Shown here: positions 14,801-51,216 of the stretch, in pieces | Layout: every line of letters begins with the position of its first letter | How positions within the stretch are numbered: position 1 is the first letter of the stretch | Assembly: GCF_001561995.1 (NCBI RefSeq) | Contig: NZ_LLWC01000038.1 | Location: forward strand, 1 to 52,581 | Direction of reading: 5' to 3' | Length of the DNA stretch: 52,581 bases | Source of the DNA: Polycladidibacter hongkongensis | GTDB taxonomy: Bacteria > Pseudomonadota > Alphaproteobacteria > Rhizobiales > Stappiaceae | Translations under genes and position numbers: made by a program | Notes under the pieces: model-generated | Databases searched by the model: none | The model's input: the letters and a program-made list of their open reading frames with translations, nothing else | Told to the model about the DNA's origin: nothing

Positions 14801-17800
14801 GAGGGCAATAAGCCCGCGCTTTCGGTTGCCCAATATCTCTCACTTAAACACCTTGACAGCACAGCAGACAATGAACTGTTGGATCTAAGCGGTAAAGTAA
14901 AGCTGCACTACACTGTTATTGACGGTGATAAGGATGGGGTGATAGCTGAATATGATATCGGGGCCCATATCAAGTTCCATGATGATGCGCCGCTGATCAG
15001 CGGCGCAAAAGATCTGATATTTAATGAGAAAGACTTTACGTGGAACGGCACTCAATTCGAGCCGCTAGAAGAGGATGGATCTTTCGAACTGGACTATGGT
15101 GCCGATGGGAAAAACTCGGACGGCTCGCTAAAGTTCTCCAATACAACCCTTGTTGATCTCAAAGCCTTGGCGCTGAAGTCCTTCGACGCACCCTTAGACT
15201 ACGTGCTTTCCCAAGATGGGCAAACTGTTACTGCCTATGCAGGTAGCCTGACGGTGTTCGAGGCGTCGCTCTCTCCGGATAATCCGAGTAACTATACCTT
15301 CACGCTGCATCGCCAGCTTGATCATGACGCAACCGGCACTGGAGGAGAGCAAAAGCAGCTGCAGTTTACCGTTGAAGCGAAAGATGGCGATGGCGACACG
15401 GCGACCGGCAGCTTCAAAGTGACTGTCAATGATGATGCACCAAAGGCTGGTTTACTGAACATCGTTCTTGATGATGACGACATCGGAGCAGATGGCAATA
15501 TAGGTGGTGTTGGGGATGATGACGCATCAGGCATCACGGGCAAAATTCCACACGATTTTGGTGCGGATTTTGCGGGAACGATCCGATTACAGGATCCAAG
15601 CGGATTGCCGGATGGCTTCTCATTTACAACGTCTACCCAGAACAACGGTTTGAAAACGAAAATTGTTTTCTCGCAAATGCAAGGGGCCGAGAAAGTCGAT
15701 GTGGCCAGCGTCTCTCTTGATCTTGAGGGCAACTATGTGATCACGCAGTTGGCGCCGATACAGCATCCGGAAGGAGGCAATGAGAATAATATTGATTTCA
15801 CGCTGACCTATATCGTTGAGGATGGCGATAAAGATGCAGCTATTGGAACAATATCGGTTCATTTGGATGATGATACGCCGGACGCGGTTGTCTCAACTCC
15901 TGTCGGTGTAACAGAAGAGGTGGGAGCTGAGATTGCCAATGGCAAAGCCCAGGGAGACTTCGGTGCCGATGGTGAAGCCGCTGAAGACGCCTATCTGCTT
16001 TCAGGTGAAGGGGCTCCGGACGGCTTTAGTTACAAACTCGTCGGTGGTGAACTGCAAATAAAGCAAGGCGACACGCATGTGTTAACCGCCAGCATGGATG
16101 CGCAGGGGAACTACACTATAAAACAAATTGCACCCCTTTCGCAGCCAAGTGGGCAGGCTTATCAGAGCATACCGATAACCTACGTCACCATGGATAGCGA
16201 TGGCGACACGGTGCAAAACACCCTCACCTTCCAGATCTCAGATGGAGGACCTAATGGTGGTAATCCTGTTTGCATCCAAGTGGATGAGGATGACTTGCCC
16301 GAGGGCAGCGACCCAGTCAAGGAAGATGTCAATCTCAAAGGTGAGTTTGGCATCGACTGGGGGCAAGATGGAGCAGGATCGCTCAGCTTTGCGGACACAG
16401 TTGCGCCAAGTGGGCTCACATCTGGTGGCAATGCTGTCGAGTATCACTTCAACTCAGACCGGACGCAGTTAACAGCAAAAGCAGATGGCGCTGACGTCTT
16501 CTTTGTGCTGCTAAAGACAGATGGCAGCGGGGAGTATGAGTTTGAACTAAAAGGATCCCTAGATCATCCAGGTGGACAGGGAACGAACAAGCTTGATCTC
16601 GACTTTGATCTCCTGATTAAAGACAAGGACGGTAGCGCTGCGACCACGAGTCTCAAAGTACAGGTCATTGACGATGTGCCGACTGTGAGCTTGGACCTAC
16701 AAGGTTTTGAGCTCACACTGGACGAAACCGCAGGAATACAAGGAAATGAGATAGATGCTGCTGACAGCGTGCAGCAGATCAAAACCCTTGTCGCGGGAGC
16801 GCAAACCGATGCAGATATGCAGCCGCAATATGCGCATGCGAAGCTTCCAGATGGCGCGTTTACATCCCTTGCAGGGGCCGATGGCGAGAAGTCTCTTTCA
16901 TTCTCTCTAAGCTATGGTGATAGTCCAAGTTCGCAGCTCACAACGACTGAGGGAGCGAAGATTTCTCTTATGAAAGAAGGAGACCTTCTCGTCGGCCGTG
17001 TCGATGACGGTTCAACTAACGGGCGTGCCGCCTTTGCGCTTCATGTGGATGCGGCAACAGGCGAGGTTTCTGCAGTGCAAATCTTAAGCCTGCTGCATCC
17101 TGAAAAACCGGAGGCGCACAATGAACCGGTAACACTGGGGGACTATGGGCTTAAGCTTGCTGTTACAATCGAAGATGGAGATGGCGATATCGAGACCAGC
17201 GAAGTGTCGATTGGAGACTTCATCCGGTTCTTGGATGATGGGCCAAATGCGAATGATGATGGCACACATACCGTTGAGCAAGGCCAATCGGTAACTATCG
17301 CTGTACTTGCGAATGACAGCGGCGGCGCAGATGGACTAGATCAATATGAAATTGAAGAGGTCTTGGGCGGTTCCGCTGAATTTGTAAATGGCAAGCTGGA
17401 GTTTACAGCAGATGCTGACGCGACAGACGGGAGAGTGACCTACAAGATCGTCGATGGCGACGGTGATGTCGATACCGCTACGGTACAGTTTGAAATCGAA
17501 AACAGTACCCCGAACAAGGCACCAACCATTAGCCTTGCCGGACAAGGCGAAGTCTTTAACGTTCGCGATGAGTTCAATTTCAACGAGTTTGCGACAACAC
17601 CGGGCAATTATGAACAAAGCCGGCGGGATGATGGCTCAGCGAACTTTGGTTCGGGCGGCACCAACTCCACAGAGTCTTGGCAATTTAATGGTGCTCAAAA
17701 AGACATTATCGATGATGGACTTATGAAAGTCAGTGGTTCGCAGAACGGGACATTTGTGTACCGAAAAATACCTGCGGAAGCTGATAGTGGTGGCCAGATC

Positions 17801-19069
17801 TCGTTCGATTACAAACTAAGTGTGAACGCAGACCCCGCAGACTTTGAAGTCTACCTGACCGGAAAAACCAACGGCAACCATGCGAATGTGCGTCAGTTGA
17901 TTAATTTGAATAAGCCTAGGGCAGACGGCCAAACCGACCACGCGGAAGCCATCCTGCGGGATCTAGGTACTTCGGAGTACTACATCGAGATTCATGCGAA
18001 AAAGGGCGCACAAGGTTTCTTGGAGATTGATAATCTTGATGTGAGTTGGTCAAACTCGGTTGAGGGCAACATCATGGTCTACACACCAGGTGGTGTGGCG
18101 GTCACTGCGGATGCGTCGCTTGGCGACGATAGCGGCAAACTTAACAAGGCAATCGTAATTGTCGAGCACGCCGCGTTGGCAGGAGGCGACAAGCTCGAGT
18201 ATCGGGGGAGTAACCCGGACATTGCAGCAAGTGTGGTGCGTAATGGGTCCAGCATGACGCTAACTTTAACCGGAGTTGCGAGTGTTGAGGCCTATGAACA
18301 AGCGCTGGAGGATGTGTATTTTGTGCATCATGACCCAAAGCCAAGCACTGCGAGCATCAATACCTCTATCGAGATTTTTGATGAAGAAGGGCTTGGCAGC
18401 GGTGCTGCAATTGGCTCGATTTCATTTGATAGCACGTCTCTTTACGACACTGCTGGTAATAACAATTCCGGCTCGAATCTTAATGGCCATGTGGGCAACG
18501 ACACGCACGCAGGTGGCAATGGCGCATCCATTTTGTTGGGCAAGCAGGGCCACGATCAGCTTATGGGAAGACAAGGTAATGATGAAATTCAAGGGCAGGC
18601 AGGCAACGATGACTTGCGTGGGGGGCAAGGCAACGATGTTCTTTATGGAGGCGACGGCAATGACACGCTTAATGGAGGCACAGGAGCGGATGTGCTTATC
18701 GGTGGGCGTGGGTTTGACAGCCTAACTGGCGGTATTGGTGCTGATACCTTCATTTTCCGCGGATTAGAAGCTGGAGGTAAAGTTGGTAGCAGCGATGTCG
18801 TAACAGACTTCAATATTGCCGATGATATTTTGGATGTTTCGGCACTGTTGGATGCTGCATTTGGTTCAAATGCCGATGTCACGGGTTTTGTTCATTTAGA
18901 CAAATCCGGTGAGGATGTTGTCTTGAAAGTTGATCGGAACGGCGACGGCGACAATTGGGAGCAAGTCGCGGTGCTCAACGACCTTGGGACCAGCCTTTCT
19001 GGAGGTGACACCATTAAAATTGTTGTCGATGAAGATGGAACCTACGTGGATATGAGCGTCCCAAGCTAA
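11876..19069 (+). CDS. Giant type I-secreted RTX adhesin (2397 residues)
   Basis: A single uninterrupted frame. The N-terminal 200 residues have no signal peptide and include a small beta domain (DLQIAFTEGGTTLIKGFF), like the retention or pre-repeat modules of LapA-type adhesins. From about residue 190 to 1800 come about ten repeats of 130-210 residues, each ending in an acidic DxD-P type motif (VVDDIPSQ, VQDDVPVV, ITDDKPEP, FHDDAPLI, VNDDAPKA, LDDDTPDA, VIDDVPTV, FLDDGPNA) and containing EFxLHxxLDHP-like strands and DGDGD calcium sites; this is the T1SS-143/VCBS-like architecture. A further beta-rich region precedes the RTX nonapeptides (about 2220-2300). The end (ADTFIF, VVTDFN, DILDVSALL) is the standard type I C-terminal target domain. 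Likely function: calcium-stabilised surface adhesin. No type I exporter genes are in the window. Confidence 0.92.
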   Translation: MTDTTMEKSGAAVGSNTEKMSLIVQALERGKDLSLEKVIGQKVDFSQIMDTPLQLFRVGDDLQIAFTEGGTTLIKGFFAGDASAPAVVLDGGQTLSLAQFTFAANISTSQDIQTAVGEGERLIEQLQDQDPRGPGQQFSDPKIGDLGPGLNVHALLKPEDYGRGAPKEYPLGLENTKPQVNAAPDAVRVDEADMDRDDLDGAETPITIRGGLGIDFGRDGAQVRALSFQLLNDVPVDGNGTPLTLTADSVPLAYQVSQLANGSALLKATGLNGELVFELLLDTSATNGAYTFTLHGNLDHIETNADELPFSLRYTAADKDGDTITSSLDITVVDDLVKIGDHVGGKVWEDSLPFGNQDDGDTPAGNPQHTVKNNLKIDWGVDNADQVDADNYQDKPDGLGDRALVFATDPLGSEQSSEVSLSDGAVIGNAVTDHSGNLVTSGGLQVYFEVIENGTALRGYVLEGETDTARIADSTATGTTVFEIILRDDGVGSYEFTLHKPLDHPGNNDADDLKLSFNFEAHDGDGDIAYDDFSIVVVDDIPSQVLIKKEEISERDLTSSAPISIEGAIDVDFGADGKHGETGLSFAQQQNSLVNLTSGGHAITYTVSGDGSVLTAIADGSTVFEVSLTDTGYTFMLHKALDHTKPDNDSTLDLSFDVIATDGDGDQVPFSFTVCVQDDVPVVSGDPILVTIDEDDLNTAGNEGTSPDSDTHADGYVFATGSLATLVNFGLDGPHPVSAAGLTDGAISYLDGLGLKSKGAAITFDTVDGVLVGSTDSGPVMGLSINMETGAFEFRQYASLDHKLAGGENLELQPNNISAIDFGRVLKIVDADGDTATLAGKFSISITDDKPEPQIKSFEGAARVDETSGQQNGEVEDLAALFEPVESPGSDPHLNGEVAYAQTELDIVFANNVGADGLLAEALSIHRSGNWSGLKTTEGHEIQLSVGKKGLIEGKVYNPDGEQHGETAFAIHLGLEGNKPALSVAQYLSLKHLDSTADNELLDLSGKVKLHYTVIDGDKDGVIAEYDIGAHIKFHDDAPLISGAKDLIFNEKDFTWNGTQFEPLEEDGSFELDYGADGKNSDGSLKFSNTTLVDLKALALKSFDAPLDYVLSQDGQTVTAYAGSLTVFEASLSPDNPSNYTFTLHRQLDHDATGTGGEQKQLQFTVEAKDGDGDTATGSFKVTVNDDAPKAGLLNIVLDDDDIGADGNIGGVGDDDASGITGKIPHDFGADFAGTIRLQDPSGLPDGFSFTTSTQNNGLKTKIVFSQMQGAEKVDVASVSLDLEGNYVITQLAPIQHPEGGNENNIDFTLTYIVEDGDKDAAIGTISVHLDDDTPDAVVSTPVGVTEEVGAEIANGKAQGDFGADGEAAEDAYLLSGEGAPDGFSYKLVGGELQIKQGDTHVLTASMDAQGNYTIKQIAPLSQPSGQAYQSIPITYVTMDSDGDTVQNTLTFQISDGGPNGGNPVCIQVDEDDLPEGSDPVKEDVNLKGEFGIDWGQDGAGSLSFADTVAPSGLTSGGNAVEYHFNSDRTQLTAKADGADVFFVLLKTDGSGEYEFELKGSLDHPGGQGTNKLDLDFDLLIKDKDGSAATTSLKVQVIDDVPTVSLDLQGFELTLDETAGIQGNEIDAADSVQQIKTLVAGAQTDADMQPQYAHAKLPDGAFTSLAGADGEKSLSFSLSYGDSPSSQLTTTEGAKISLMKEGDLLVGRVDDGSTNGRAAFALHVDAATGEVSAVQILSLLHPEKPEAHNEPVTLGDYGLKLAVTIEDGDGDIETSEVSIGDFIRFLDDGPNANDDGTHTVEQGQSVTIAVLANDSGGADGLDQYEIEEVLGGSAEFVNGKLEFTADADATDGRVTYKIVDGDGDVDTATVQFEIENSTPNKAPTISLAGQGEVFNVRDEFNFNEFATTPGNYEQSRRDDGSANFGSGGTNSTESWQFNGAQKDIIDDGLMKVSGSQNGTFVYRKIPAEADSGGQISFDYKLSVNADPADFEVYLTGKTNGNHANVRQLINLNKPRADGQTDHAEAILRDLGTSEYYIEIHAKKGAQGFLEIDNLDVSWSNSVEGNIMVYTPGGVAVTADASLGDDSGKLNKAIVIVEHAALAGGDKLEYRGSNPDIAASVVRNGSSMTLTLTGVASVEAYEQALEDVYFVHHDPKPSTASINTSIEIFDEEGLGSGAAIGSISFDSTSLYDTAGNNNSGSNLNGHVGNDTHAGGNGASILLGKQGHDQLMGRQGNDEIQGQAGNDDLRGGQGNDVLYGGDGNDTLNGGTGADVLIGGRGFDSLTGGIGADTFIFRGLEAGGKVGSSDVVTDFNIADDILDVSALLDAAFGSNADVTGFVHLDKSGEDVVLKVDRNGDGDNWEQVAVLNDLGTSLSGGDTIKIVVDEDGTYVDMSVPS

Positions 19070-38336: not shown

Positions 38337-39149
38337 ATGAGTGAAGTAGCAACTAAATACCGTGCTCCAGCCCTCGAAAGGGGCCTTGATATAATCGAGT
38401 TGCTTGCTAGCCAGGATGAACCGCTTTCAAAAAAAGAAATTGCAGAGAAGTTAGACCGCTCTATCAATGAGCTGTTTCGGATGCTAACGATCCTCTCCGC
38501 GCGCGGATACCTTCAAGTAGATGAAACTGGGCGATTTGGTTTGTCGCTAAAGACGTTTGAGCTCTCCAACCAACATCCGCCGGTGGAGCGCTTGCTCCAA
38601 GCCGCCAATGAGCAAATGATGGCCTTGGCGGCCGCCAGTTTCCAGTCCTGTCATTTGTCGGTGCTGCAGGGTCGTGAGATGCTGGTGATAGCGAAGCAAG
38701 ATAGCCCCTATAAAATGGGGTTCTCACTTCGATTGTCTGCGCGCATTGATATTCATGGTTCAGGCTCTGGTGTCACCATGCTTGCCTACTTACCGGAAGA
38801 GAAGCGTATTCTCCTACTGGATCAACTTGATGTAACGCCTTTGGAGCGCAATACAATTTTGCAGCAAGTGAAATCAGTGCTTGAGAGCGGCTACTTTATT
38901 GGCGAGAGCCCTCAGGTTCTTGGGGTAACAAACATTACCTATCCTGTGTTTAATGCGAGAAGTATAGTTGAAGCGGTCATCACCGTTCCCTTCCTCACTC
39001 TGAATTCTGATAGTCTGCACCATCAGGTGACCAGTTTTGAGGATACGCGCATAGAAACAGCGCGGACTGCAAAACAATTAACACAAGCGATTGGCGGCCG
39101 CTTTCCATCGGACTATCCGCACGATTTGGCATGGGATGGCTTGGACTAA
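38337..39149 (+). CDS. IclR-family transcriptional regulator (KdgR-like)
   Basis: The 270-residue product has a winged helix-turn-helix (LDIIELLASQDEPLSKKEIA, EKLDRSINELFRMLTILSARGYLQ) and an IclR ligand domain (YKMGFSLRLSARIDIHGSGSG, VTNITYPVFN). KdgR, the regulator of pectin and KDG metabolism, belongs to this family. The divergent kduI makes a KDG-type effector plausible. The stop codon overlaps that of the opposite-strand DUF4434 gene. Confidence 0.9.
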   Translation: MSEVATKYRAPALERGLDIIELLASQDEPLSKKEIAEKLDRSINELFRMLTILSARGYLQVDETGRFGLSLKTFELSNQHPPVERLLQAANEQMMALAAASFQSCHLSVLQGREMLVIAKQDSPYKMGFSLRLSARIDIHGSGSGVTMLAYLPEEKRILLLDQLDVTPLERNTILQQVKSVLESGYFIGESPQVLGVTNITYPVFNARSIVEAVITVPFLTLNSDSLHHQVTSFEDTRIETARTAKQLTQAIGGRFPSDYPHDLAWDGLD

Positions 39150-40195
39150 AGCGGACAATTTAGTGACCAGTTCTCAAATAGGGCCTTGAGCTGATCCCTG
39201 TTGGTTCCCTGAGCATGGATAATGTGCTGGGCCATGGAAAAGACAGCGACATTGTCGCTTTGATTTTCAAGGCGCTGGTACACTTCTTCTGCGCTGGCCG
39301 GAAGTGTGCGGAATTCTGTTGAGGCATTGTCGACATTGAAGATTTCTACGACAGGCACAAACGTCCAACGTTCTATTCTCGCTCTCCGCTCAATTTTTCG
39401 ATAGAGGTTTTCAGACTGTTTGGGCTGTAAAAGCCCTGCCCCTACCCCATCCTGTCCAAAAACAGTACGAATTCCGGTATTGGCGACGAACTGGCTAATT
39501 GCATGCACCACTTCTTTTGGGCGCTCACCGAGGTTTGTGTAACCACTAGCGGCAACAGGGTAATCACCATTGCTGTTCAGCATTTGCCGTGTAATGCGAA
39601 AATAGGATTCTAAACGCAGTCTTGTTTGCTTGCTAAGCAGCATTGCCGCATCTATTTCGTCGGGTATGTACCATCCAGCTATTGTTGTAGGCGAAATCTC
39701 TTGTTCGTAAAGCAGGCGCTGGATGCTCGCGGTTATCTGGAAGTTGTCGACGAGCCGCTGGTTGATGTAGTTCTTGGCATCCGGGCCGTTAATTCCTCGT
39801 ATAAAGTGTGGATCGTAGCGAAGTCCAAGCCAAATTTTGGTACCGGTTCGCTCTGCCGCCTTCAGCGCCGCAACGAGCCATTTAGGTGCGTGGTAACGTT
39901 CGTTTTTAGAGTGACCCCAGTGCACCCATTGCAGCACGAGCCTTTTTACACCCATATTGTTGTGGGCGCGCATCTCGTTGTTCCAAAAGATTGGATCGGA
40001 AGAGTAGGTATCAAGCCAAGGTTGGATGAAGCTGGTTTTTACGGGCGAGCATGTGTTTGCAGCGACAGCTAGGCCAGTCTTGCCGTCTTCCGTTTTTGGC
40101 AAGCTGATCGCCCCCGCAAAAATCATAGCGGCAGCGAACGCCACTTTAAAAGCTTGCTTGTAGTCCAAAAAGAATGCGTTCTTCTGTTGACCCAT
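39146..40195 (-). CDS. DUF4434-type putative glycoside hydrolase-like exported protein
   Basis: The 349-residue product has an N-terminal hydrophobic stretch (FKVAFAAAMIFAGAISL) preceded by a basic N-terminus, so it is exported or anchored in the inner membrane. The body resembles DUF4434 (TIM-barrel, glycoside-hydrolase-like): VKRLVLQWVHWG near the start, IWLGLRYD, the likely acid pair region IAGWYIPDEID and VPVVEIFN, and AVFSMAQHI near the end. It overlaps the 1252-residue gene upstream by 50 bp and is third in the GT2/outer-membrane operon. A hydrolase or binding role on the exported glycan is inferred from that. E. coli nfrAB has the unrelated ybcH instead at this place. Confidence 0.7.
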   Translation of the reverse strand: MGQQKNAFFLDYKQAFKVAFAAAMIFAGAISLPKTEDGKTGLAVAANTCSPVKTSFIQPWLDTYSSDPIFWNNEMRAHNNMGVKRLVLQWVHWGHSKNERYHAPKWLVAALKAAERTGTKIWLGLRYDPHFIRGINGPDAKNYINQRLVDNFQITASIQRLLYEQEISPTTIAGWYIPDEIDAAMLLSKQTRLRLESYFRITRQMLNSNGDYPVAASGYTNLGERPKEVVHAISQFVANTGIRTVFGQDGVGAGLLQPKQSENLYRKIERRARIERWTFVPVVEIFNVDNASTEFRTLPASAEEVYQRLENQSDNVAVFSMAQHIIHAQGTNRDQLKALFENWSLNCPL

Positions 40196-43100
40196 CTGAA
40201 CTCGTCACCTCGTGTCCAGCTCGGCCGTAAAGCTCTACTTGCACGTGGTCCCCATAGTATTCCGTTGACCAGCCTTGCCATTTAAATGACGCGCCAGCTC
40301 CTACCTCAACTGCGTATTGCGGTGTACCATCCGCCCAGTTTGAGCTTCCTATGGAGTAAACATAAGGGGACAAGATTGTCTTATCTCCTATGTTAAAAGT
40401 GTAACCAATTCGGCCATCACCATAAGCCAATGTGTTGGCTTCATTTTCTAAAAACTGTGCAACTTCAACGTAAAGACTGTAATAAGGCTGCCCTGTTGTA
40501 GACTGAATGCCCTTTGCGGTTTTGGTGTACAAAGGCAGGAAATCGTTACCTTTTGTGTAGGACCACATAATGCGGCCAAGCCAATTGTCCTGCGTATTGT
40601 CGCCTACACCAAAAAACCTCTCTAGCCCCAGTTTTAGATTATGTCGCTCAAACGGTTTGAACCGTACCCCCAAGATAGCTTGTGTACTATCATCGTCTGG
40701 TGTGAGGCTTGCCGCCTCGTTGTTCCATTGAAACCTAGTAATAAATTCAAAAACTTGACCATTTCGGTACCCAATGATCGGTGGTCGCCAACCCGCTTCG
40801 ATTGAACCAAATGGGCTGGAGCTAGCGATGCCTAGCACAGAACCGACGTTTTGCGTTTCATCGGAAACGGGAGACACGGAATTGGAAGCCAAGACCCAGA
40901 ATGGGTAGTCTATGATTTTTAGTTGCCGCTGGATGCGCCGCTTTTTGTCTTCCTCGACAAGGTCGAGGTGGCGCTTGTTCAACCCTTGAACGACTATTTT
41001 GAACTGCTGCGAAGCGCGCTTGTTTTGGTAGGTCTTGAGCAGTTGGTAAGCTAGGTCTTCGTGTACGGCTGGCTGGTTAGGCCTTAGCGCCAAGGACTCA
41101 TCAAAACGCTCAATTGCGGCGTGGGCGTCTTCGCGGGCAATTGCGAGATAGCCTCCAAGCGACAGCAAATTTGCATCATGCAGGTCTCTGGTAGGTAGGC
41201 TTTGAAATAACTGCTCGGCCTTGTCCAGCTCACCTAAACTCATCGTAATATAAATCTGAGAATATCGCAGATTTAACCCTGTGCTGGCGGGGAAGTCACC
41301 GCTTGCTGGCAAACCATTTAATATGCTGAGCGCTTGTTGGAGGTTGCTCAGGGCTTCCTCACGCAGTTTCGTGATCTTTCTGTTGAGTGCCGGCTCTGCT
41401 GCGCCTTGCTTTGCAAGAGTTTCAGCTTGGTCGCCTAGAATTTGCGCTCGTAAGCTGTAGTGGACGACCTGCTGATTGAGGGACAGCGTGTTTGGATTTA
41501 ACCGCTTTAGAAGCTTGAGCGCGGCGGCTTTGTTACCACCTTGCATTTCCCTAGACGCAAGTTCGAGGCCGGCAGCAGGAACCTTATGAGCGTAAAATGC
41601 AAGCGCAAGCCAACGCTTGACAGCAACGGGATGGGCAGCCTTTGCATAGGTATAGGCAGTTTGTAGTGCCGCTTCTCCAGATGGCGCTGTCTTGTACAAA
41701 TCCTCAAGTTGTTTTGCCGCCGCGAGAAAGTTTCCCACTTTGATGTGTGCATCAACGGTGGCTCGAAGGATGTTGATGGGATCCTCCTTCGGAATTGTTG
41801 CGGGCTGCGTTGGGCACTCAAACTGTTTTATCGCATCAATTTGCCCCCCAAGTTCGTCCAGAGCCGCGCAGCGATAGACCCCTGCCAAGGGTTTAAACTC
41901 CTCTGGAAACGGGGCGAGGAGCAGCTGCATTGCTTCGCCAGAGCGATCCATCACCAATAGCATAGCGGCTGCCTCGAGGCGGGCTTCCGGCCTTTGCTCT
42001 AATCGAAGGCTGGCCTTATAAACGCTAAGTGCCTCTTGCTCGTGGTTCTGTCCTTTGAGCGACCTTGCCAAAAACAGCAGCGACTCAGCGCGCGCTTCGG
42101 CGTTCTTTCCTTTCCTTGACACAAGTTGTAGCCATTCCCTCCCTTCCTGATGGGCCCGGTTGGCTTTCAAAAGAGTAAGATAGGCGGGTGTAATAGCTGC
42201 CGGATCCTGCGATAAGTTCCAGTCGTAGAGATACATGGCGAAGCCTCGGTTAAGGTCACCCATCTGGATGAGAAGGGTGCCAAAGCCGAAATAGAGCTGA
42301 GATAAAGCGCGCTTCTCGTCTGCATTCAGTGTTTGTGACGGTGCGATATCGAGTGCGTTCTGATAGTATTTAAGCGCATCCGTCGGGCGGGAATCTATGC
42401 GGTATATTTCCGCGAGTTCCTTTAGTGTCTGCCATTTGCGAACCAAAAGATCTGATTGCCGGAAGGAAACAAGCGCATTTGACAGGTCGCCCGTCGAGCG
42501 ACTGATTTTTCCAAGGCGATAAAGGAAATCGGCCCAGATTTGAGGATCCTTTTTCAGTTGCTCAGGCGTGGCGCGCGCTCTGTACTCGACAAGAAGCTGG
42601 GAGGCGAGCACTTCGAAGTTTCGTTCTGCAGCAACATTGGCAAGTAGCAGGACGCTTTGCGGGCTGTCGCCTCGTTTGGTAAGTGCGCGTCCTGCTTGTG
42701 CGGCAAGCGCTTCTCTGGGGGTGTTCCATAGCAGATCGACTACCGCAGTGAGATAGTTGGTCACTTGTTGTGTGGGGGCTCCTTCGAAATCTAACAGGGT
42801 CCCCTCTTCCGAAAGTAAGGCAGTTTGAGCAGCCTGTTCCTGTTCTGCGTTTCTTAAAGCGTAAGCCAGTTGTACGCGCTCATCTAGACTCATCCGTGCA
42901 AGTGGTGCGCGTTGCAGTGCTTCTATCAGTTGCCTGCTTTGCCCGGCAGCAGTGGCGCTCCCAACCAATAAACGAGTAAACGTCCTGCGCTGAACAGCAT
43001 CTACGGCATGCCCCGCAAAGAGCTGAGCTTTCCATGCGGAGAATAGGTTTTCATAGGCTTCATCATTGTTGTTGCTTTCAATCTGGGCGATTGCACGGTT

Positions 43101-43904
43101 AATAACCAGCGCACGTTTTTTGTCTGGAGCTTCGATAAGTGACGATAGGGAGTTCCATTCGCTGATCGCCGCTTGGGTTCTGTTAAAATTGGCAAGCAGG
43201 TCGGCTCGAATCAGCCGTTCTTCCGGTGTGGCGACGCCAAGCTCGCGTAGTTGGTTTAGTGCGTTCAGGGCCTCTTCCTTGTCATCAATTTGCAGGGCTG
43301 CTTGTGCACCAGAGGCAAGTGCGGCTGCTTTGTCCGCTTCAGTTAGGTTGCCATAAAGTAGAGCGGAATTATAATGCCGCAACGCTAGCGCCCAATCTCC
43401 ACGAGATGATGCAAGGTTTCCCTTGATAAGATAGGCAGGGCTAAACTCGAGATAATAGGAAAGAAGATCATCAAGGGATTCTTCTGCCACAGTGCCCCGT
43501 CCCTCGCTGATCAAGACCAGCGCCTTCTGCCATAACGCAAACAAGTTTTCTGGATCGACAGCGAGCAGTCGGTTCAGCTCTTCAATGGCTTTGTCTGATT
43601 GACCTGCATTTAAATATCGATAAGCCAGATCTAGAATTGGGAAGCTGCGAAATTCACGCCAAGTTTCGCTGAGGTATGAATGCTGGCGGAGCCAATCCGC
43701 TAATAACTTCTGATAGTACGCCGAGCGCTGTGCTTGTGCTTGCTCAGGATCATTCGGGCGAGGGTCCGCATGTGGAGGCGCGCTAACAGGCTTATGGGCC
43801 TGTGTTTCTGGAATTGGGAGTGAGGACTGTTGGCTAAACGCAGTACTAATTAAACTCAACACGATCACTCCACCGAGGTAGAGAGGTCGTAGAAGTTTTT
43901 GCAT
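40146..43904 (-). CDS. NfrA-like outer-membrane TPR/beta-barrel protein
   Basis: The 1252-residue product begins with a signal peptide (YLGGVIVLSLISTAFSQ). Residues about 60-1000 are helical repeats of TPR type (for example EELNRLLAVDPENLFALWQK, ALKYYQNALDIAPSQTLNAD, AIERFDESLALRPNQPAVHE). The last 230 residues are beta-barrel-like with aromatic-ended strands (FEFITRFQWNN, YYSLYVEVAQFLE, RIGYTFNIGD) and end in Phe, the standard outer-membrane signal. This layout matches E. coli NfrA (phage N4 adsorption protein A) and other glycan-export porins with TPR domains. The glycosyltransferase gene lies 4 bp upstream. Probable role: guide and export a polysaccharide made by the GT2 partner. It is longer than NfrA. 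Confidence 0.8.
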   Translation of the reverse strand: MQKLLRPLYLGGVIVLSLISTAFSQQSSLPIPETQAHKPVSAPPHADPRPNDPEQAQAQRSAYYQKLLADWLRQHSYLSETWREFRSFPILDLAYRYLNAGQSDKAIEELNRLLAVDPENLFALWQKALVLISEGRGTVAEESLDDLLSYYLEFSPAYLIKGNLASSRGDWALALRHYNSALLYGNLTEADKAAALASGAQAALQIDDKEEALNALNQLRELGVATPEERLIRADLLANFNRTQAAISEWNSLSSLIEAPDKKRALVINRAIAQIESNNNDEAYENLFSAWKAQLFAGHAVDAVQRRTFTRLLVGSATAAGQSRQLIEALQRAPLARMSLDERVQLAYALRNAEQEQAAQTALLSEEGTLLDFEGAPTQQVTNYLTAVVDLLWNTPREALAAQAGRALTKRGDSPQSVLLLANVAAERNFEVLASQLLVEYRARATPEQLKKDPQIWADFLYRLGKISRSTGDLSNALVSFRQSDLLVRKWQTLKELAEIYRIDSRPTDALKYYQNALDIAPSQTLNADEKRALSQLYFGFGTLLIQMGDLNRGFAMYLYDWNLSQDPAAITPAYLTLLKANRAHQEGREWLQLVSRKGKNAEARAESLLFLARSLKGQNHEQEALSVYKASLRLEQRPEARLEAAAMLLVMDRSGEAMQLLLAPFPEEFKPLAGVYRCAALDELGGQIDAIKQFECPTQPATIPKEDPINILRATVDAHIKVGNFLAAAKQLEDLYKTAPSGEAALQTAYTYAKAAHPVAVKRWLALAFYAHKVPAAGLELASREMQGGNKAAALKLLKRLNPNTLSLNQQVVHYSLRAQILGDQAETLAKQGAAEPALNRKITKLREEALSNLQQALSILNGLPASGDFPASTGLNLRYSQIYITMSLGELDKAEQLFQSLPTRDLHDANLLSLGGYLAIAREDAHAAIERFDESLALRPNQPAVHEDLAYQLLKTYQNKRASQQFKIVVQGLNKRHLDLVEEDKKRRIQRQLKIIDYPFWVLASNSVSPVSDETQNVGSVLGIASSSPFGSIEAGWRPPIIGYRNGQVFEFITRFQWNNEAASLTPDDDSTQAILGVRFKPFERHNLKLGLERFFGVGDNTQDNWLGRIMWSYTKGNDFLPLYTKTAKGIQSTTGQPYYSLYVEVAQFLENEANTLAYGDGRIGYTFNIGDKTILSPYVYSIGSSNWADGTPQYAVEVGAGASFKWQGWSTEYYGDHVQVELYGRAGHEVTSSDGSTEERILFGLQASF

Positions 43905-43908
43905 GAGC

Positions 43909-45348
43909 TTACGTTTGCGCCTCCTTGTCGTTCAACTCTCCTTCAAAGTCGTGGGTTGTTTTGTCCCAGCCTATCGTCTCGCCTGTTCGCTTGTGACGAA
44001 GCCAAATGCGGGTCGCTCTGATCATGGCGACGTAATTAATCAGTATCGCGAGGAAGTAGCGCACAACAATCAATGGGAGGTAGCGTTTGCCATAGTGGAA
44101 CCATGTAAAAATGGAGCGTTGCACTAGGCGATGCAAAAGAAGAAAGAGGTTAAACCAGATCACAATCCATAGAGGATGATCTTCCCGCAATAACGGAGGA
44201 ACCTGATAGGCAAACGGATCAAGGGCGGAGTATATCCAAAGACCTAGATAGAGAAGGATAGCAAAATATCCGATTAGTATCGCATGAGAAAAGAAGATCA
44301 TCTTTCTATCACGCCAAAAGAAATAGCGTTGCGCCCACGTGCCCTTCCAGCCAAGTTGTGACCAACCTTGAAAAGCGATCCCAATTGTCCAGCGCGTTTT
44401 TTGGCGAACGCTGGCCCAGAATCTGTTCGGAAATAGCTCTTGTGTTGCCGCGTATTTAGTGGTTCTTCCCGGTACTTTGGACGTGAGCCATAGCATATGG
44501 TGCCGGATGCCATGGGAGTGCATGCGCATTGAAAAGTCATAGTCTTCGGTTAACGAGGAGGTGTTAAACACGGTGCCGAATTGCTCGCGCGCTATGATAA
44601 TTGCACGCCTGCTAAAGCAGGTTCCAACCCCTGCCCCTGATACTGTATGACTTAAATATTCGCGGACGACAGCTTCCTTGCTGTGGAACTCAGCAAATTC
44701 GTCCATGTAATGGCAGCCTACGATATCGCGACGGCGTCTTGGTAAGGAAAGAACCGGCACTTGAATAACATCGTAGTTCTCTAGCGCCGCGTTGCAAATA
44801 TGGAGCAGGCGTGGATTAAGGACATCTTCTGCGTCCTGCATAACGACGCCTTTGAAAACAATAGCATGCTCTGTTTCGAATGCGATGATTGCTGACAGAA
44901 TCTGGTTTACACAATCGGCTTTGCAGGTTGGCCCGGGATGCGATGTCGTAACAACGTGGATGCGATGGTCTTTTTCTTTTAGTCTATTGGCAGCTGCAAT
45001 TGTTTCCGGGTCATTTGGATAGACGCCCAAAAAAACATGATAGCTTGGATAATCAAGCGTTTCCATCATGTTAGTTACTGCTGGCACAAGGATATTGGCT
45101 TCATCCCACGCAGGCAACATTATTGCCATTGGCGATATTGGGGGACTGCCAGTTGCCTTTAACAATTGATCTTCGGTTCGTTTCGCAGCGACTCCGGTAT
45201 CCTTATTTACTTTTAGATAAAAGAGACCATCAATAAATAGATCATCAACACCCGAGGCGAAGAAGACATATGCAGCAAATAGAAATGCGCTTTGTGACAC
45301 TAGGAAAATAATCACTAATAGATCTGTTAGAAGCAAGTTTGTCTCCAC
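43909..45348 (-). CDS. NfrB-like membrane GT2 glycosyltransferase
   Basis: The 479-residue product starts with GTG 45348 or, with a GGAG site 7 bases before it, TTG 45336. One N-terminal membrane segment (VIIFLVSQSAFLFAAYVFF) is followed by a GT2 domain (MAIMLPAWDEANILVPAV, MQDAEDVLNP with the DxD-type acidic residues, SLTEDYDFSMRMHSHG with the catalytic Asp, RQKTRWTIGIAFQGW with the Q-x-x-R-W motif) and about three or four C-terminal membrane segments. It matches the glycosyltransferase half of E. coli NfrB. It ends soon after the membrane segments and lacks the C-terminal MshEN-type c-di-GMP-binding domain of E. coli NfrB. It should polymerise a sugar at the inner membrane for the outer-membrane partner. 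Confidence 0.85.
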   Translation of the reverse strand: METNLLLTDLLVIIFLVSQSAFLFAAYVFFASGVDDLFIDGLFYLKVNKDTGVAAKRTEDQLLKATGSPPISPMAIMLPAWDEANILVPAVTNMMETLDYPSYHVFLGVYPNDPETIAAANRLKEKDHRIHVVTTSHPGPTCKADCVNQILSAIIAFETEHAIVFKGVVMQDAEDVLNPRLLHICNAALENYDVIQVPVLSLPRRRRDIVGCHYMDEFAEFHSKEAVVREYLSHTVSGAGVGTCFSRRAIIIAREQFGTVFNTSSLTEDYDFSMRMHSHGIRHHMLWLTSKVPGRTTKYAATQELFPNRFWASVRQKTRWTIGIAFQGWSQLGWKGTWAQRYFFWRDRKMIFFSHAILIGYFAILLYLGLWIYSALDPFAYQVPPLLREDHPLWIVIWFNLFLLLHRLVQRSIFTWFHYGKRYLPLIVVRYFLAILINYVAMIRATRIWLRHKRTGETIGWDKTTHDFEGELNDKEAQT

Positions 45349-45546: not shown

Positions 45547-46263
45547 TTGACTTTAGGTTTTTCAAATCAGCAATACGCTGGCACTGAACTAAGCTACGGC
45601 AATTTCGTAGGACAACGTTTTGAAAGTTGTCAGCTGTCAACTGAACAGATTGAAGACGCCGATTTACGGGATTCTGTTTGGTTAGATTGCGACCTGACCA
45701 ACTCGAGTTTTGTTGGCTGTGATTTTAGAGGATCACGTTTTGAGAACTGCTCATTCTATTCAGGGGAGAAGCGTGCGGGGGCAATATTCAAAGGATCAAT
45801 GCTGCAAAATGCGGAGTTTAAATCATGTCAGATGCAATTAGTATGCTTTGAGCGTTGTGAATTGTTCAATGTGCGCATGTCTCAATGTCGTGCGCAAGGA
45901 CTTCGACTTCTCTCTAGTTCTTTTGCAACACGTCGGGGCAGCGGACTAACAAACGCTTTATGCATAGAAGATTGCGATCTCGCTTACGCTGATCTTTCTG
46001 GCTTGGACCTTTCAGGCTGTTCGTTTGCTAGCTGCAAACTAATCGAAGCATCGATTAGCTCTTCCAATTTGAATGGTGCTGCTCTTCGTGATTGCGATGT
46101 AACAAACGTGGATTTTATGCGCTCCGATTTGTCAAATGCAGATCTGACTGGCAGCCAGCTTGCTGGTCTAAATTTACTTCAACTTGCAGGATACAAGGGC
46201 CTCAAAATATCGCATGATCAGCAGCATTGGTTACTGAGCGCGATCGGCCTGCACGTGAATTGA
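45547..46263 (+). CDS. Qnr-like pentapeptide repeat protein
   Basis: The 238-residue product starts with TTG, supported by an AAGGGTGG site 6-7 bases before it. Nearly the whole length follows the A(D/N)LxX repeat (for example ADLRDSVWLDCDLTNSSF, ADLSGLDLSGCSF, SNADLTGSQLAGLN). It shares Qnr-specific features: a loop after the first coils (FYSGEKRAG, 70-78, loop A), the sequence CRAQG at 114-118 found in Qnr proteins, a second break (ATRRGSGLTNA, 127-137, loop B) and a C-terminal helix ending LLSAIGLHVN. Qnr proteins mimic DNA, bind gyrase and topoisomerase IV and protect them from quinolones. Whether this copy gives resistance is unknown. No SOS box is evident upstream. Confidence 0.8.
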   Translation: MTLGFSNQQYAGTELSYGNFVGQRFESCQLSTEQIEDADLRDSVWLDCDLTNSSFVGCDFRGSRFENCSFYSGEKRAGAIFKGSMLQNAEFKSCQMQLVCFERCELFNVRMSQCRAQGLRLLSSSFATRRGSGLTNALCIEDCDLAYADLSGLDLSGCSFASCKLIEASISSSNLNGAALRDCDVTNVDFMRSDLSNADLTGSQLAGLNLLQLAGYKGLKISHDQQHWLLSAIGLHVN

Positions 46264-47490: not shown

Positions 47491-48828
47491 ATGATGCCTA
47501 GAGTTTCAGTATTTGGTCTCGGTAAACTAGGGGCACCGATGCTGGCGGTTTTTGCAAGCAAGGGCTTCGAGGTTATCGGTGTTGATAAGAATGAGCGCTT
47601 TGTCGATTTGATTAATCAGGGGATTTCACCAGTAGAGGAACCTCAACTTCAAGAACTAATATCAGTAAACAGTGAGCGTATTGAAGCGACAATCGACACG
47701 CGCGCTGCGGTTTTGGATAGTGATATTAGCTTTATAATTGTCCCTACGCCTAGTGGTGTAGATGGTCTGTTTTGTAACGACTTTGTACTGGCAGCGATTG
47801 AAGAAATTGGAAGTGCGCTACGAGCCAAAGACAGCTATCACTTGGTTGTAGTCACCTCCACAGTAATGCCAGGTTCAACCGGCGGCGAAATTAGAGAAAA
47901 ATTAGAAGCAGCTTCTGGTCGTCTCGTCGGTGATGGCATTGGCCTTTGCTACAATCCAGAATTTATAGCACTTGGTTCTGTTGTACGGGACATGTTGCGT
48001 CCGGACATGATTCTCATTGGGGAGTCCGACCACAAAGCTGGGGCTATGTTAGCGGAGCTATATCGCAGCACCACAGAAAGCAATCCTGAGTTTCATCGCA
48101 TGAACTTCGTGAACGCCGAGCTCTGCAAGATTTCCGTGAATACATTTGTGACCACAAAAATATCATATGCAAATATGATCGCAGAATTCTGCGAGAGGCT
48201 TGATGGTGCGGACGTAGATACAGTTACGCATGCGTTGGGCGCAGACACGAGAATCGGAAAAAAGTATTTGAAGGGTGCCGTCGCCTATGGCGGACCTTGC
48301 TTCCCAAGAGACAATAGAGCGTTCACCGCGCTCGGAGAGAAGCTTGGGGCTAATACGGCATTGGCGGAAGCTACTGATAAAATAAACTCTTACCAAACCG
48401 AGCGTCTCCTAGCGCAGATACTTCTTGCGCTTGATAGTCGTTCCGATCGGGTGAGCATATTGGGCCTATCATACAAACCAAATACTCCGGTGACGGAATG
48501 TAGTCAGGGCCTTGAACTGGTCAGGCGCTTGAGCAAACTCAACGTTAATGTGTCTGTGAGTGATCCGGTTGCATTACAAAACGCGGACACAATTCTACCT
48601 AATGGAGTGCAAGCGCACGCGACTATAAAAGAGACGATTTGTGGAAGCGCTGTTGTTGTGATTTGCACCGCATGGAAAGACTACGCTTCGCTTCCCTTGT
48701 TGATTACCGAGTTGGCCCCAAGCGACCGGCCTCGCTTCGTTATTGATCCTTGGAGGTGTACTGGAGTAGCTCAGCAGATAATCAACTCGAGCGACTACGA
48801 GGCTGCGAAACCTATTGAAACCGCTTAG
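47491..48828 (+). CDS. UDP-glucose/GDP-mannose dehydrogenase-family nucleotide-sugar dehydrogenase
   Basis: The 445-residue product has the N-terminal NAD loop VFGLGKLGAPMLAVFASKG, the conserved PTPSGVDG and TSTVMPGSTGG, and the catalytic Cys270 in YGGPCFPRDN, followed by a C-terminal domain with LGLSYKPNTPVTECS. Enzymes of this family oxidise UDP-glucose, UDP-ManNAc or GDP-mannose to the uronate. The substrate is not decided by these motifs. It is paired with a methyltransferase gene 26 bp downstream, suggesting a modified sugar used in polysaccharide or lipopolysaccharide. Confidence 0.93.
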   Translation: MMPRVSVFGLGKLGAPMLAVFASKGFEVIGVDKNERFVDLINQGISPVEEPQLQELISVNSERIEATIDTRAAVLDSDISFIIVPTPSGVDGLFCNDFVLAAIEEIGSALRAKDSYHLVVVTSTVMPGSTGGEIREKLEAASGRLVGDGIGLCYNPEFIALGSVVRDMLRPDMILIGESDHKAGAMLAELYRSTTESNPEFHRMNFVNAELCKISVNTFVTTKISYANMIAEFCERLDGADVDTVTHALGADTRIGKKYLKGAVAYGGPCFPRDNRAFTALGEKLGANTALAEATDKINSYQTERLLAQILLALDSRSDRVSILGLSYKPNTPVTECSQGLELVRRLSKLNVNVSVSDPVALQNADTILPNGVQAHATIKETICGSAVVVICTAWKDYASLPLLITELAPSDRPRFVIDPWRCTGVAQQIINSSDYEAAKPIETA

Positions 48829-48854
48829 TTACAATTCATTTGCCCGGAGTTAAC

Positions 48855-49652
48855 ATGAATAATTCAATACATGAAGATGACGAAGTCTTGGAACGTGTCG
48901 TGGACTATTGGAACGCTCGCCCGTGCAATATACGCCATTCAACCGCTCCGATTGGTACCAGAGAGTACTTTGATCAAGTGGAGGCTAGGAAGTACTTTGT
49001 AGAACCACACATTCCCAGATTTGCCGAGTTTGAATGTTGGAAGGGTAAACGGGTTTTGGAGGTGGGGTGCGGGATCGGCACGGATGCGGTCAATTTTTCA
49101 CGCGCGGGCGCGATTTACACCGGGGTCGATATATCTAGCGAGTCACTCAAGCTTGCCAGAAAGCGGTTCGATGTATTCAATCTTGACGGAAGGTTTGTCG
49201 AAGCGAACGCAGAATGTTTGGAGACCCATTTTGAAGAAGATGAGTTTGACCTAGTCTATTCCTTTGGCGTTCTTCATCATACTCCTTCACCCCCAAGAGC
49301 AATTCAATCTATTAGAAAAGTTATTAATAGACGGGGCAGCTTCAAGTTGATGCTGTATGCCAAAAACAGCTGGAAGGCATCTATGATTGCGGCTGGTTTA
49401 GATCAGCCTGAGGCTCAATTCGGCTGCCCTATTGCTTTCACCTACAACCGCGAAGAACTTTCATCTTTACTCGAACCAGATTTCCATATTTCTAACGCTC
49501 GGCAGGATCATATATTTCCATTTAAAGTGGATGAGTATGTAAATTACAACTATGTCCGCGAAGACTGGTTTGAAGCGATGCCTAGTATTGTATTTAAGGC
49601 GCTTGAAGAGCAGCTAGGGTGGCATTACTTAATTGATGCGACTCCAAGTTAA
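48855..49652 (+). CDS. Class I SAM-dependent methyltransferase
   Basis: I use ATG 48855 with GGAG six bases before it; a TTG five codons upstream is less likely. The product is 265 residues. The SAM-binding motif is VLEVGCGIGTDAVNFSRAG, followed by an acidic beta-2 end (YTGVDISSESLKLARKRF) and DLVYSFGVLHHTPSP. This type often acts on small molecules or sugars. The adjacent nucleotide-sugar dehydrogenase suggests a sugar-related substrate. A perfect 32-bp palindrome follows 9 bp after the stop. Confidence 0.88.
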   Translation: MNNSIHEDDEVLERVVDYWNARPCNIRHSTAPIGTREYFDQVEARKYFVEPHIPRFAEFECWKGKRVLEVGCGIGTDAVNFSRAGAIYTGVDISSESLKLARKRFDVFNLDGRFVEANAECLETHFEEDEFDLVYSFGVLHHTPSPPRAIQSIRKVINRRGSFKLMLYAKNSWKASMIAAGLDQPEAQFGCPIAFTYNREELSSLLEPDFHISNARQDHIFPFKVDEYVNYNYVREDWFEAMPSIVFKALEEQLGWHYLIDATPS

Positions 49653-50007
49653 CGAACTTATGTCAGTTGGTTGACAGCTGTCAACCAACTGACGCTTTAG
49701 AAACGCGCTTGCAAACGAAATCCATTGATGAACCAAAGCGCATTCATAGCGAACAAAATTCAGTGTCTTTTGTAGTTGCAACCCGAAAAACTGGCACGGT
49801 TAAATAGGGCAACGCGGTGTAACCCGACGCTAAAACCCCTTTTCCCGACAAAAGTAATCCGCGACCTGACGTCGCATTATCTTGAATAGAGACCCACTAT
49901 AGAATGAAAAATGTTTTGAGAAGTGCAAAAAAATTCATTCGGTGACTGCTAAAGTGGTAGGCGCTGTGATATTGCACAATCCAATTAGCATTTATTGGGT
50001 GGGAAAT
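49653..50007. other. Gene-free stretch with a perfect palindrome
   Basis: About 355 bp between the methyltransferase and the MFS gene. It holds the palindrome at 49662-49693 and a small GCGAC/GTCGC dyad near 49860-49876, then an AT-rich lead into the MFS gene. No ORF here looks real. Confidence 0.5.
49662..49693. repeat. Perfect 32-bp palindrome
   Basis: Arms GTCAGTTGGTTGACAG and CTGTCAACCAACTGAC are exact complements with no spacer, 9 bp after the methyltransferase stop. There is no T-run after it. It also contains GTTGACAG/CTGTCAAC repeats that look like a protein-binding site. Confidence 0.8.
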
Positions 50008-51216
50008 ATGCAAATACAACTTCGAACAAATTGGTTCAAGGTGCTGCTTGTGTGGGTCGCTGGAGTGGGCGCGGCCATGCAATACGCAAAAATCTCCGTT
50101 TCATTCCCACATCTTGCAGAAACATATAGCAGCTACGGTACAACGGTTAGCTTCCTAATTTCGATTGTTGGGCTTGGTGGCGTGGTTTTCGGAGCGGCGG
50201 CAAGCCATTTCGCCACAAAGCACGGCCTAAAGAGAGCGCTCATATCTGCGTTATTCTTTGGAGCGGTATTGTCAGTAGCACAGTCCTTTCTGCCGTCTTT
50301 TTTGCCGATGCTCGCACTTAGAATTGCCGAAGGAATGTCACACCTATTAATTATTGTATCGGCACCAACAATTATTGCCAGCTTGTGTGAAGAAAGACAT
50401 CGCTCAATTGCAATGGCCTTATGGGGAACATTCTTTGGAATAGGATTTGCAATAGCCGGTGCAGTAAGTTCGCCTGTTATCGACATGGGCGGCGTACCAA
50501 TGCTGCTAACACTACACGCGCTGTGGCTAGTCATTATCGCGGTTCTGTGTCAGGCTTTACTGCCGCTTTCCAAAGGCGCCGAGCATGAGGAAAAACGTGT
50601 TTCATGGGCGAACTTTCATCGAGAGATATACGCAGACTATCGCAACTTGCTGCCAGCGTTTAGTTTCTTTTGTCATACATCGCTATATGTAGCGTTGTTA
50701 ACATTCTTGCCAAGCTTTGTTTCAAAGGACACCGCTCTTCTGATGGCCGCTGCCTTGCCAGTTGTCACCATACTCGCGACAATATCTGCTGGTGTATTAT
50801 GCCAATGGTTGTCACCAATCAGCTTGACGCTCCTTGCATTTTTAACCATGTGTGTTGGTGCAATCTCAATAATTTTTGCGCCACACGCTTTGCTGGCTTC
50901 GCTAATCTACGTGATTATGTTTGCATCGGGAATGATCCAAGGGACATGTTTTATAATGGTCCCGTTTTTAACCAGAAAACCGGAGGATCAGGCTAGGACG
51001 AACGGCGCTATGGCACAGCTTGGCAATCTCGGCGCAACGATTGGAGCGCCAGTGTTTGCGTTTTCACTTGCTAGTTTTGGGAAAACTGGAGTAGGCGCGT
51101 TGGCTGCATCTATATGTTGCTGTGGAGCTGGTTTGCTGGTTATTGCACTAATGCGGTGGAAAAGCCGTGAGGATGATAGCCCCCAATACTCTACTCGTCA
51201 GCGCGTGACTTATTAA
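50008..51216 (+). CDS. MFS transporter
   Basis: I use ATG 50008, preceded by GGGTGGG, instead of 22 codons upstream; the product is 402 residues. About 12 hydrophobic segments are present, with a cytoplasmic loop between 6 and 7 (LPLSKGAEHEEKRVSWANF) and an Arg/Lys-rich loop after segment 2 (HFATKHGLKRAL). It resembles the CynX/NimT-type major facilitator proteins. The solute is unknown. It has its own upstream gap and no obvious partner. Confidence 0.9.
   Translation: MQIQLRTNWFKVLLVWVAGVGAAMQYAKISVSFPHLAETYSSYGTTVSFLISIVGLGGVVFGAAASHFATKHGLKRALISALFFGAVLSVAQSFLPSFLPMLALRIAEGMSHLLIIVSAPTIIASLCEERHRSIAMALWGTFFGIGFAIAGAVSSPVIDMGGVPMLLTLHALWLVIIAVLCQALLPLSKGAEHEEKRVSWANFHREIYADYRNLLPAFSFFCHTSLYVALLTFLPSFVSKDTALLMAAALPVVTILATISAGVLCQWLSPISLTLLAFLTMCVGAISIIFAPHALLASLIYVIMFASGMIQGTCFIMVPFLTRKPEDQARTNGAMAQLGNLGATIGAPVFAFSLASFGKTGVGALAASICCCGAGLLVIALMRWKSREDDSPQYSTRQRVTY

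What the first reader, a model, noticed from the sequence alone, without database searches (positions are those of the whole stretch)
39146..45348. NfrA/NfrB-like glycan export operon with a DUF4434 partner and no c-di-GMP module
The GT2 protein matches the catalytic half of NfrB but lacks its C-terminal c-di-GMP-binding part; the partner is an outer-membrane TPR/beta-barrel protein longer than NfrA; a glycoside-hydrolase-like DUF4434 protein is fused to the operon by a 50-bp overlap. In E. coli NfrAB makes a secreted N-acetylmannosamine-containing glycan used by phage N4. This three-gene version may be a new synthase-dependent exopolysaccharide system with different control and its own trimming enzyme.
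Basis: partly seen in the sequence, partly recalled or inferred. Interest (0 to 1): 0.8.

Follow-up and report, generated by a model that had tools for sequence, protein, structure and literature searches.

The report
Nfr sugar-polymer operon without c-di-GMP switch
In Pseudovibrio this is a relative of the E. coli surface-sugar system that phage N4 uses as its receptor, with the same three genes in the same order; its synthase lacks the usual c-di-GMP switch, and the third gene, of unknown function, looks like a sugar-cutting enzyme.

Summary
The three genes are there as described: a GT2 synthase, a TPR/beta-barrel protein and a DUF4434 protein overlapping the barrel gene by 50 bp. The DUF4434 partner is not new: E. 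coli K-12 carries nfrB-nfrA-ybcH in the same order, and YbcH is the DUF4434 protein. So this is an nfrBA-ybcH exopolysaccharide operon, published in 2021. What differs is real but modest: the synthase ends where E. coli NfrB's c-di-GMP-binding region begins. All 12 intact Pseudovibrio copies share this; no detached module was found in the window's genome. Near relatives on the tree keep it, so it was probably lost. A published survey found MshEN in 1,705 of 1,841 NfrB homologues, leaving 136 without. In 10 of 10 congeners whose contig continues, a UDP-GlcNAc 2-epimerase gene follows directly, pointing to a ManNAc product; the window genome has only an unlinked, different epimerase. The DUF4434 protein models as a TIM barrel with invariant glutamates on strands 4 and 7, as in clan GH-A glycosidases. 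A variant of a known system; YbcH as a hydrolase is the most testable lead.

The parts
43909..45348 (-). nfrB-like processive GT2 synthase, 479 aa as called (probable TTG start at 45336), without the C-terminal c-di-GMP-binding region
40146..43904 (-). nfrA-like outer-membrane exporter, 1252 aa: N-terminal hydrophobic, signal-like segment (read by eye), TPRs, C-terminal beta barrel (about residues 1002-1251)
39146..40195 (-). ybcH homologue (DUF4434), 349 aa, N-terminal hydrophobic helix and predicted (beta/alpha)8 barrel with invariant E180 and E284
40146..40195 (-). 50-bp overlap of nfrA and ybcH; by the ORF coordinates also 50 bp in 7 congener loci with intact genes (L017, L018, L019, L021, L022, L023, L025), 71 in L016 and 83 in L026
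45349..45546 (-). A+T-rich stretch between the operon and a divergent pentapeptide-repeat gene; presumed promoter region (consensus matches in the wider region not clearly above shuffles)

Best explanation
An nfrBA-ybcH exopolysaccharide operon of Pseudovibrio in which the synthase has lost the c-di-GMP-sensing C-terminal region. The GT2 polymerises an activated sugar, most likely UDP-ManNAc made by a WecB-type epimerase, and moves the chain through the inner membrane; NfrA carries it across the periplasm and outer membrane; YbcH, on the periplasmic side, acts on the chain, most likely as a hydrolase. Shown here: homology, gene order, motifs, absence of the module, conservation in the genus. 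Inferred: the sugar, the transport, activity without c-di-GMP (so control mainly by transcription or by an unknown partner), and YbcH catalysis.
For: Same three families in the same order as E. coli nfrB-nfrA-ybcH. Catalytic residues D172, D175, TED 267-269 and Q316/R319/W320 kept in 100 of 100 aligned GT rows, Pseudovibrio duplicates included. Intact GT in 12 of 16 Pseudovibrio genomes, all 12 without the C-terminal region. Purifying selection among five congeners (window not included): dN/dS 0.04-0.11 for GT, 0.08-0.17 for nfrA, 0.10-0.24 for ybcH, three saturated pairs set aside. wecB directly follows ybcH in 10 of 10 congeners whose contig continues; all 12 genomes with an intact GT have wecB, and both genomes without wecB (G003, G009) lack an intact GT. 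No A2-profile or MshEN hit in the window's genome. In the GT tree the Pseudovibrio clade sits among relatives of which two, L044 and L045, keep the region. The NfrA C-terminus models as TPRs plus a barrel; its best PDB match is BcsC, at a low TM-score.
Against: The window genome has no operon-linked wecB; its only WecB belongs to another branch of the WecB tree, seen also in G001 and G008, which have no GT hit, so it may serve another glycan. E. coli NfrB needs c-di-GMP binding for its role in N4 infection (PMC8669469 and PMC8669472, passages), so a synthase without the module needs an explanation that is not shown. GGDEF (9 matches) and PilZ (3 matches) exist in the genome, so control by a separate c-di-GMP protein is not excluded. 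In the GT tree the exact sister group is unresolved: L043, which also lacks the region, and L045 lie on long branches that meet.
Confidence: 0.75

Rival explanations
1. Control by c-di-GMP persists, through a separate receptor such as a stand-alone PilZ protein that binds the synthase.
For: The genome has 9 GGDEF matches and PilZ matches in two places: a tandem pair on C1 and a small protein of about 102 aa on C37.
Against: Neither PilZ place is on the operon's contig. PilZ proteins commonly serve other systems (general knowledge).
Confidence: 0.2
2. The operon makes a related polymer from another sugar nucleotide, and the ManNAc assignment does not hold in the window's species.
For: The operon-linked wecB of congeners is missing here and the remaining WecB is of a different branch.
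Against: The conserved catalytic residues of the GT are unchanged, and congeners with 54-60% identical GTs keep the linked wecB.
Confidence: 0.2
3. YbcH/DUF4434 is a non-catalytic scaffold, as suggested for E. coli YbcH.
For: PMC8669469 calls YbcH a putative scaffold; deleting it only partially suppressed the motility defect (passages). A shared TIM-barrel fold does not show activity.
Against: E180, D249 and E284 are identical in 60 of 60 rows, duplicates included, with E180 and E284 on strands 4 and 7 of the model, the places of the acid/base and nucleophile in clan GH-A (recalled).
Confidence: 0.35
4. The operon is decaying, and the short GT is a step in decay.
For: G009 keeps only a GT piece (query residues 4-122) in one frame with an NfrA-like protein; G001, G003 and G008 have no GT hit. 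In L020 (G006) nfrA and ybcH are each split in two ORFs.
Against: 12 of 16 genomes keep an intact GT with all catalytic residues; low dN/dS among five congeners.
Confidence: 0.04

Closest known systems
E. coli nfrB-nfrA-ybcH (N4 glycan receptor, NGR, exopolysaccharide system)
   Same: Three homologous genes, same order and direction; same GT motifs; TPR/barrel partner; DUF4434 third gene
   Different: No MshEN/C-terminal region in the synthase; longer NfrA; larger nfrA-ybcH overlap; congeners have wecB as a fourth gene
wecB-nfrB-nfrA-DUF4434 operons of Zymomonas mobilis plasmid pZZM403 and Thalassospira marina pCSC3H3
   Same: Same gene set, wecB linked
   Different: Full-length synthase (about 725-730 aa) with the C-terminal region; wecB first rather than last
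Operons with a short GT elsewhere: Desulfogranum japonicum (L043, 542 aa), Comamonadaceae bacterium OTU4NAUVB1 (L035, 515 aa), G300 (L121, 498 aa)
   Same: GT without the C-terminal region, plus NfrA and DUF4434
   Different: Other lineages; wecB found at L043 and L035 but not within L121
NCBIfam PRK14716 glycosyltransferases (four models of 442-502 positions)
   Same: Short NfrB-like GT without a C-terminal region
   Different: The window protein scores below the cut-off of all four. Possible members elsewhere were not scanned against NCBIfam; of those looked at, L032 and L124 show no NfrA nearby but L123 does
Bcs cellulose synthase (BcsA/BcsC)
   Same: Works like it: GT2 synthase plus TPR/barrel exporter; BcsC is the best Foldseek match of the NfrA C-terminus, TM 0.42
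   Different: No PilZ domain found by Pfam; different GT subfamily

Membership tests
Nfr-type (NfrBA-YbcH) exopolysaccharide system, broad sense | GT2 with DxD-type, TED and QxxRW motifs | tested here: met
   100 of 100 rows
Nfr-type (NfrBA-YbcH) exopolysaccharide system, broad sense | TPR plus outer-membrane barrel partner with NfrA_C | tested here: met
   PF13283 43.3 bits, cut-off 25; model of the C-terminal 403 residues, pLDDT 92.8
Nfr-type (NfrBA-YbcH) exopolysaccharide system, broad sense | DUF4434/YbcH in the operon, order B-A-H | tested here: met
Nfr-type (NfrBA-YbcH) exopolysaccharide system, broad sense | WecB-type epimerase in the operon or elsewhere in the genome | tested here: met
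   One TIGR00236 match over cut-off, unlinked, in G000; of a different branch from the operon-linked type
Nfr-type (NfrBA-YbcH) exopolysaccharide system, broad sense | ManNAc-containing secreted polymer | not testable with these tools
   needs glycan analysis
NfrB proper (NCBIfam NF008411, c-di-GMP-activated glycosyltransferase) | C-terminal MshEN/c-di-GMP-binding region | tested here: not met
   No hit in the protein; no detached copy found in the genome
NfrB proper (NCBIfam NF008411, c-di-GMP-activated glycosyltransferase) | Score over the curated cut-off | tested here: not met
   384.6 bits against 1170
DUF4434 (PF14488) | Score over the gathering cut-off | tested here: met
   80.8 vs 30 bits
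YbcH proper (NCBIfam NF007404) | Score over the curated cut-off | tested here: not met
   90.7 vs 344 bits
Clan GH-A glycoside hydrolases | (beta/alpha)8 barrel | tested here: met
Clan GH-A glycoside hydrolases | Catalytic glutamates at the ends of strands 4 and 7, superposing on known enzymes | tested here: inconclusive
   E180 in strand 172-182 and E284 in strand 278-284 are invariant; no atom-level superposition of these residues was made
Clan GH-A glycoside hydrolases | Hydrolase activity | not testable with these tools
   needs an enzyme assay

The most novel reading that the evidence does not exclude
Pseudovibrio runs an Nfr polymer pathway uncoupled from c-di-GMP, with a synthase active whenever expressed, and YbcH/DUF4434 proteins in general, E. 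coli YbcH included, are periplasmic glycoside hydrolases that cut the ManNAc polymer and set its length or release.
Probability: 0.3. Interest if true: 0.55.

Novelty: new variant of a known kind. Interest (0 to 1): 0.36.

Why it matters
E. coli NfrB needs c-di-GMP; a genus whose homologous synthase lacks the sensor is a natural test of what the module does and of how the pathway is otherwise switched on. The invariant glutamate pair gives the unassigned third gene of the E. coli phage-receptor operon a concrete, cheap test.

Tried and rejected
Hidden c-di-GMP domain in the synthase: rejected. Module split off to another gene: the CTD profile A2 hits 1 of 16 Pseudovibrio genomes, G003, which has no GT hit; PF05157 hits 2 of 16, G003 and G006, neither the window's genome. 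The G003 ORF reads like a type II secretion/pilus ATPase (my reading; not scanned); the G006 hit was not inspected, so a detached module is not excluded there.

Residues nearly fixed in the Pseudovibrio GTs but different in CTD-bearing synthases: seven positions, at one of which the window itself keeps the common residue; no clear gating change. The motif expression in that call was too strict (39 of 100 rows passed); one search recounted on alignment columns. The first survey script dropped GT ORFs in some loci through its overlap filter and was replaced.

Promoter-like sites (12 found, shuffle mean 8.9) and terminator-like sites (13, mean 10.0) were not clearly above shuffles. phmmer of the three proteins in PDB: no hit for the GT or the DUF4434 protein, and four TPR-type matches for NfrA; the A3 profile found 4h41 at E 2e-10 over part of its length. 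Two of the 39 A3 members did not match PF14488 at E 0.01 (37 of 39). The VIA second look at the NfrA model filled its 50 rows with matches to the TPR part and says nothing about the barrel.

Literature: 'DUF4434', 'PF14488', and 'YbcH' with 'glycoside hydrolase' gave no papers. Searches on Pseudovibrio with exopolysaccharide and c-di-GMP, on nfrA/nfrB/Pseudovibrio since 2022, and on N4 glycan receptor/NfrB/ManNAc since 2022 showed nothing on this operon by title and start of abstract (listings only). That covers the held open-access library, not all print.

The profiles were built iteratively from these same loci. Duplicate Pseudovibrio records were left out of the 81-locus count and of the tree, but not of the counts. 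In 'short' and 'long' GTs were split by open-frame length, not by domain: G378, counted as short, has a partial CTD match, and G364 matches only query positions 4-334.
Full report
What is there. The window holds three minus-strand genes at the stated coordinates. The first, 43909-45348, is a GT2; the second, 40146-43904, a TPR protein with an NfrA_C domain; the third, 39146-40195, a DUF4434 protein. The gap between the first two is 4 bp and the overlap of the last two 50 bp. From the sequence I judge the GT start to be TTG 45336.

It is the nfrBA-ybcH operon. E. coli K-12 MG1655 has nfrB, nfrA and ybcH in that order. BLASTP gives 36% identity over NfrB 23-486, a weak but significant match to the NfrA C-terminal part (E 5e-6), and 27% over part of YbcH (E 2e-11). 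The PRK09936 model, 'DUF4434 family protein', also matches the third gene (E 1e-25, below its cut-off). PMC8669469 (passages; one results section read whole) describes this operon as a putative exopolysaccharide synthesis and secretion system, with YbcH as a putative periplasmic scaffold. The companion paper PMC8669472 (passages) proposes a ManNAc-based polymer.

What differs. E. coli NfrB carries MshEN at 542-628 (Pfam). The window protein ends just after the GT/membrane part, leaving 10 residues beyond the GT profile. All 12 intact Pseudovibrio copies, of 16 genomes searched, lack the region. The window's genome has one GT copy and no MshEN or CTD-profile hit, though it has 9 GGDEF and 3 PilZ matches. 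The genus name comes from named contigs whose lengths match those of the unnamed congener genomes.

How common is it. A genome-contig scan kept the best 80 of 560 confirmed loci. With E. coli and 7 plasmid loci, and Pseudovibrio left out, 81 loci carry a GT: the C-terminal region is full-length in 59, partial in 15 and absent in 7. NfrA is present in 74 of 81, YbcH in 47 and WecB in 65, anywhere in the fetched stretch and on either strand. Of the 7 without the region, 2 have NfrA, YbcH and WecB (L035, L043). In a draw of 397 genomes of the phylum (counted), 38 have the GT. DUF4434 matches over its cut-off occur in 15 genomes (25 with weaker matches included), and in 14 of the 15, the window's among them, one lies within 15 kb of the GT; in the fifteenth, G229, there is no GT match. 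G134 and G377 also have a second DUF4434 on another contig. DUF4434 lies near 12 of 15 long GTs (open frame 560 aa or more) and 2 of 23 short ones, the window and G300. Of the 23 short GTs, 19 belong to one family, f28; of its two loci that I looked at, L123 has an NfrA-like gene and L124 none. G300 (L121) is another short GT followed by NfrA and YbcH. PMC8669469 found MshEN in 1,705 of 1,841 homologues (1,842 in its figure legend), leaving 136 without by subtraction; that section says no more about them.

Direction of change. In a 92-row GT tree the Pseudovibrio rows group together (SH-aLRT 100) inside a set with L043 (no region), L045 and L044 (both full); the 'absent' label needs at least 6 changes, 4 forced by starred branches. 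This reads as repeated loss, but root and sister group are unsure and the program warns of long branches, L043 and L045 among them.

Substrate. In 10 of 10 congeners whose contig continues, wecB directly follows ybcH (ORFs, identified). In the eleventh, G013, the contig ends inside ybcH and its wecB lies at the end of another contig. The window's genome lacks this copy; its only WecB, after an lpdA-like gene (my reading, not scanned), groups with those of G001, G008 and a second G004 copy, apart from the operon-linked ones (100/100 support). PMC8669469 reports that organisms without a wecB in another pathway have one linked to nfrB, so an unlinked copy here fits that pattern. The ManNAc assignment is therefore good for the genus and weaker for this species.

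The exporter. The last 403 residues of NfrA model with pLDDT 92.8 as TPR helices followed by a barrel of 12 long strands and two short ones; Foldseek's best match is BcsC, with a low TM-score (0.42) and high rmsd.

Selection. Among five congeners, the window not included, dN/dS is 0.04-0.11 for the GT, 0.08-0.17 for nfrA and 0.10-0.24 for ybcH, with high dS in most pairs and three saturated pairs set aside. The operon is under constraint where intact, although G009 holds only a GT piece in frame with an NfrA-like protein and three other genomes have no GT hit.

Verdict. A variant of a known exopolysaccharide operon, shared by 12 of 16 Pseudovibrio genomes, that has lost its c-di-GMP sensor. 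The control that replaces it is unknown. The YbcH-as-hydrolase idea is the most useful thing to test.

Noticed in passing
window 45547-46263: Pentapeptide-repeat protein next to the operon; matches the Qnr family model (98.6 bits, below its cut-off of 240).
   Followed up: no
window 11876-19069: 2397-aa protein with 7 DUF5801 stretches, a bacterial Ig domain and an RTX calcium-binding repeat; probably a large RTX-type surface or secreted protein.
   Followed up: no
window 47491-51216: UDP-glucose/GDP-mannose dehydrogenase family protein, a methyltransferase and an MFS transporter on the plus strand; no tie to the nfr operon seen.
   Followed up: no
L027 2593-6564 (G009): A GT piece matching query residues 4-122 lies in one open frame with an NfrA-like protein; no ybcH-like ORF is labelled there and the genome has no wecB match. 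Looks like an internal deletion.
   Followed up: partly
L020 4920-9663 / L039 (Pseudovibrio denitrificans JCM 12308): nfrA and ybcH each read as two ORFs: draft-assembly errors or decay.
   Followed up: no
L126 7470-8600 (G000:C33): The window genome's only WecB belongs to a different branch from the operon-linked WecB of congeners.
   Followed up: yes
L035 8848-10518: A DUF2334 gene sits between the short GT and the TPR gene in Comamonadaceae bacterium OTU4NAUVB1; possible polymer-modifying enzyme.
   Followed up: no
L033 4791-6938, L034 5561-6916: Genes annotated BcsB (cellulose c-di-GMP-binding regulatory protein) lie between wecB and the nfrB-like gene.
   Followed up: no
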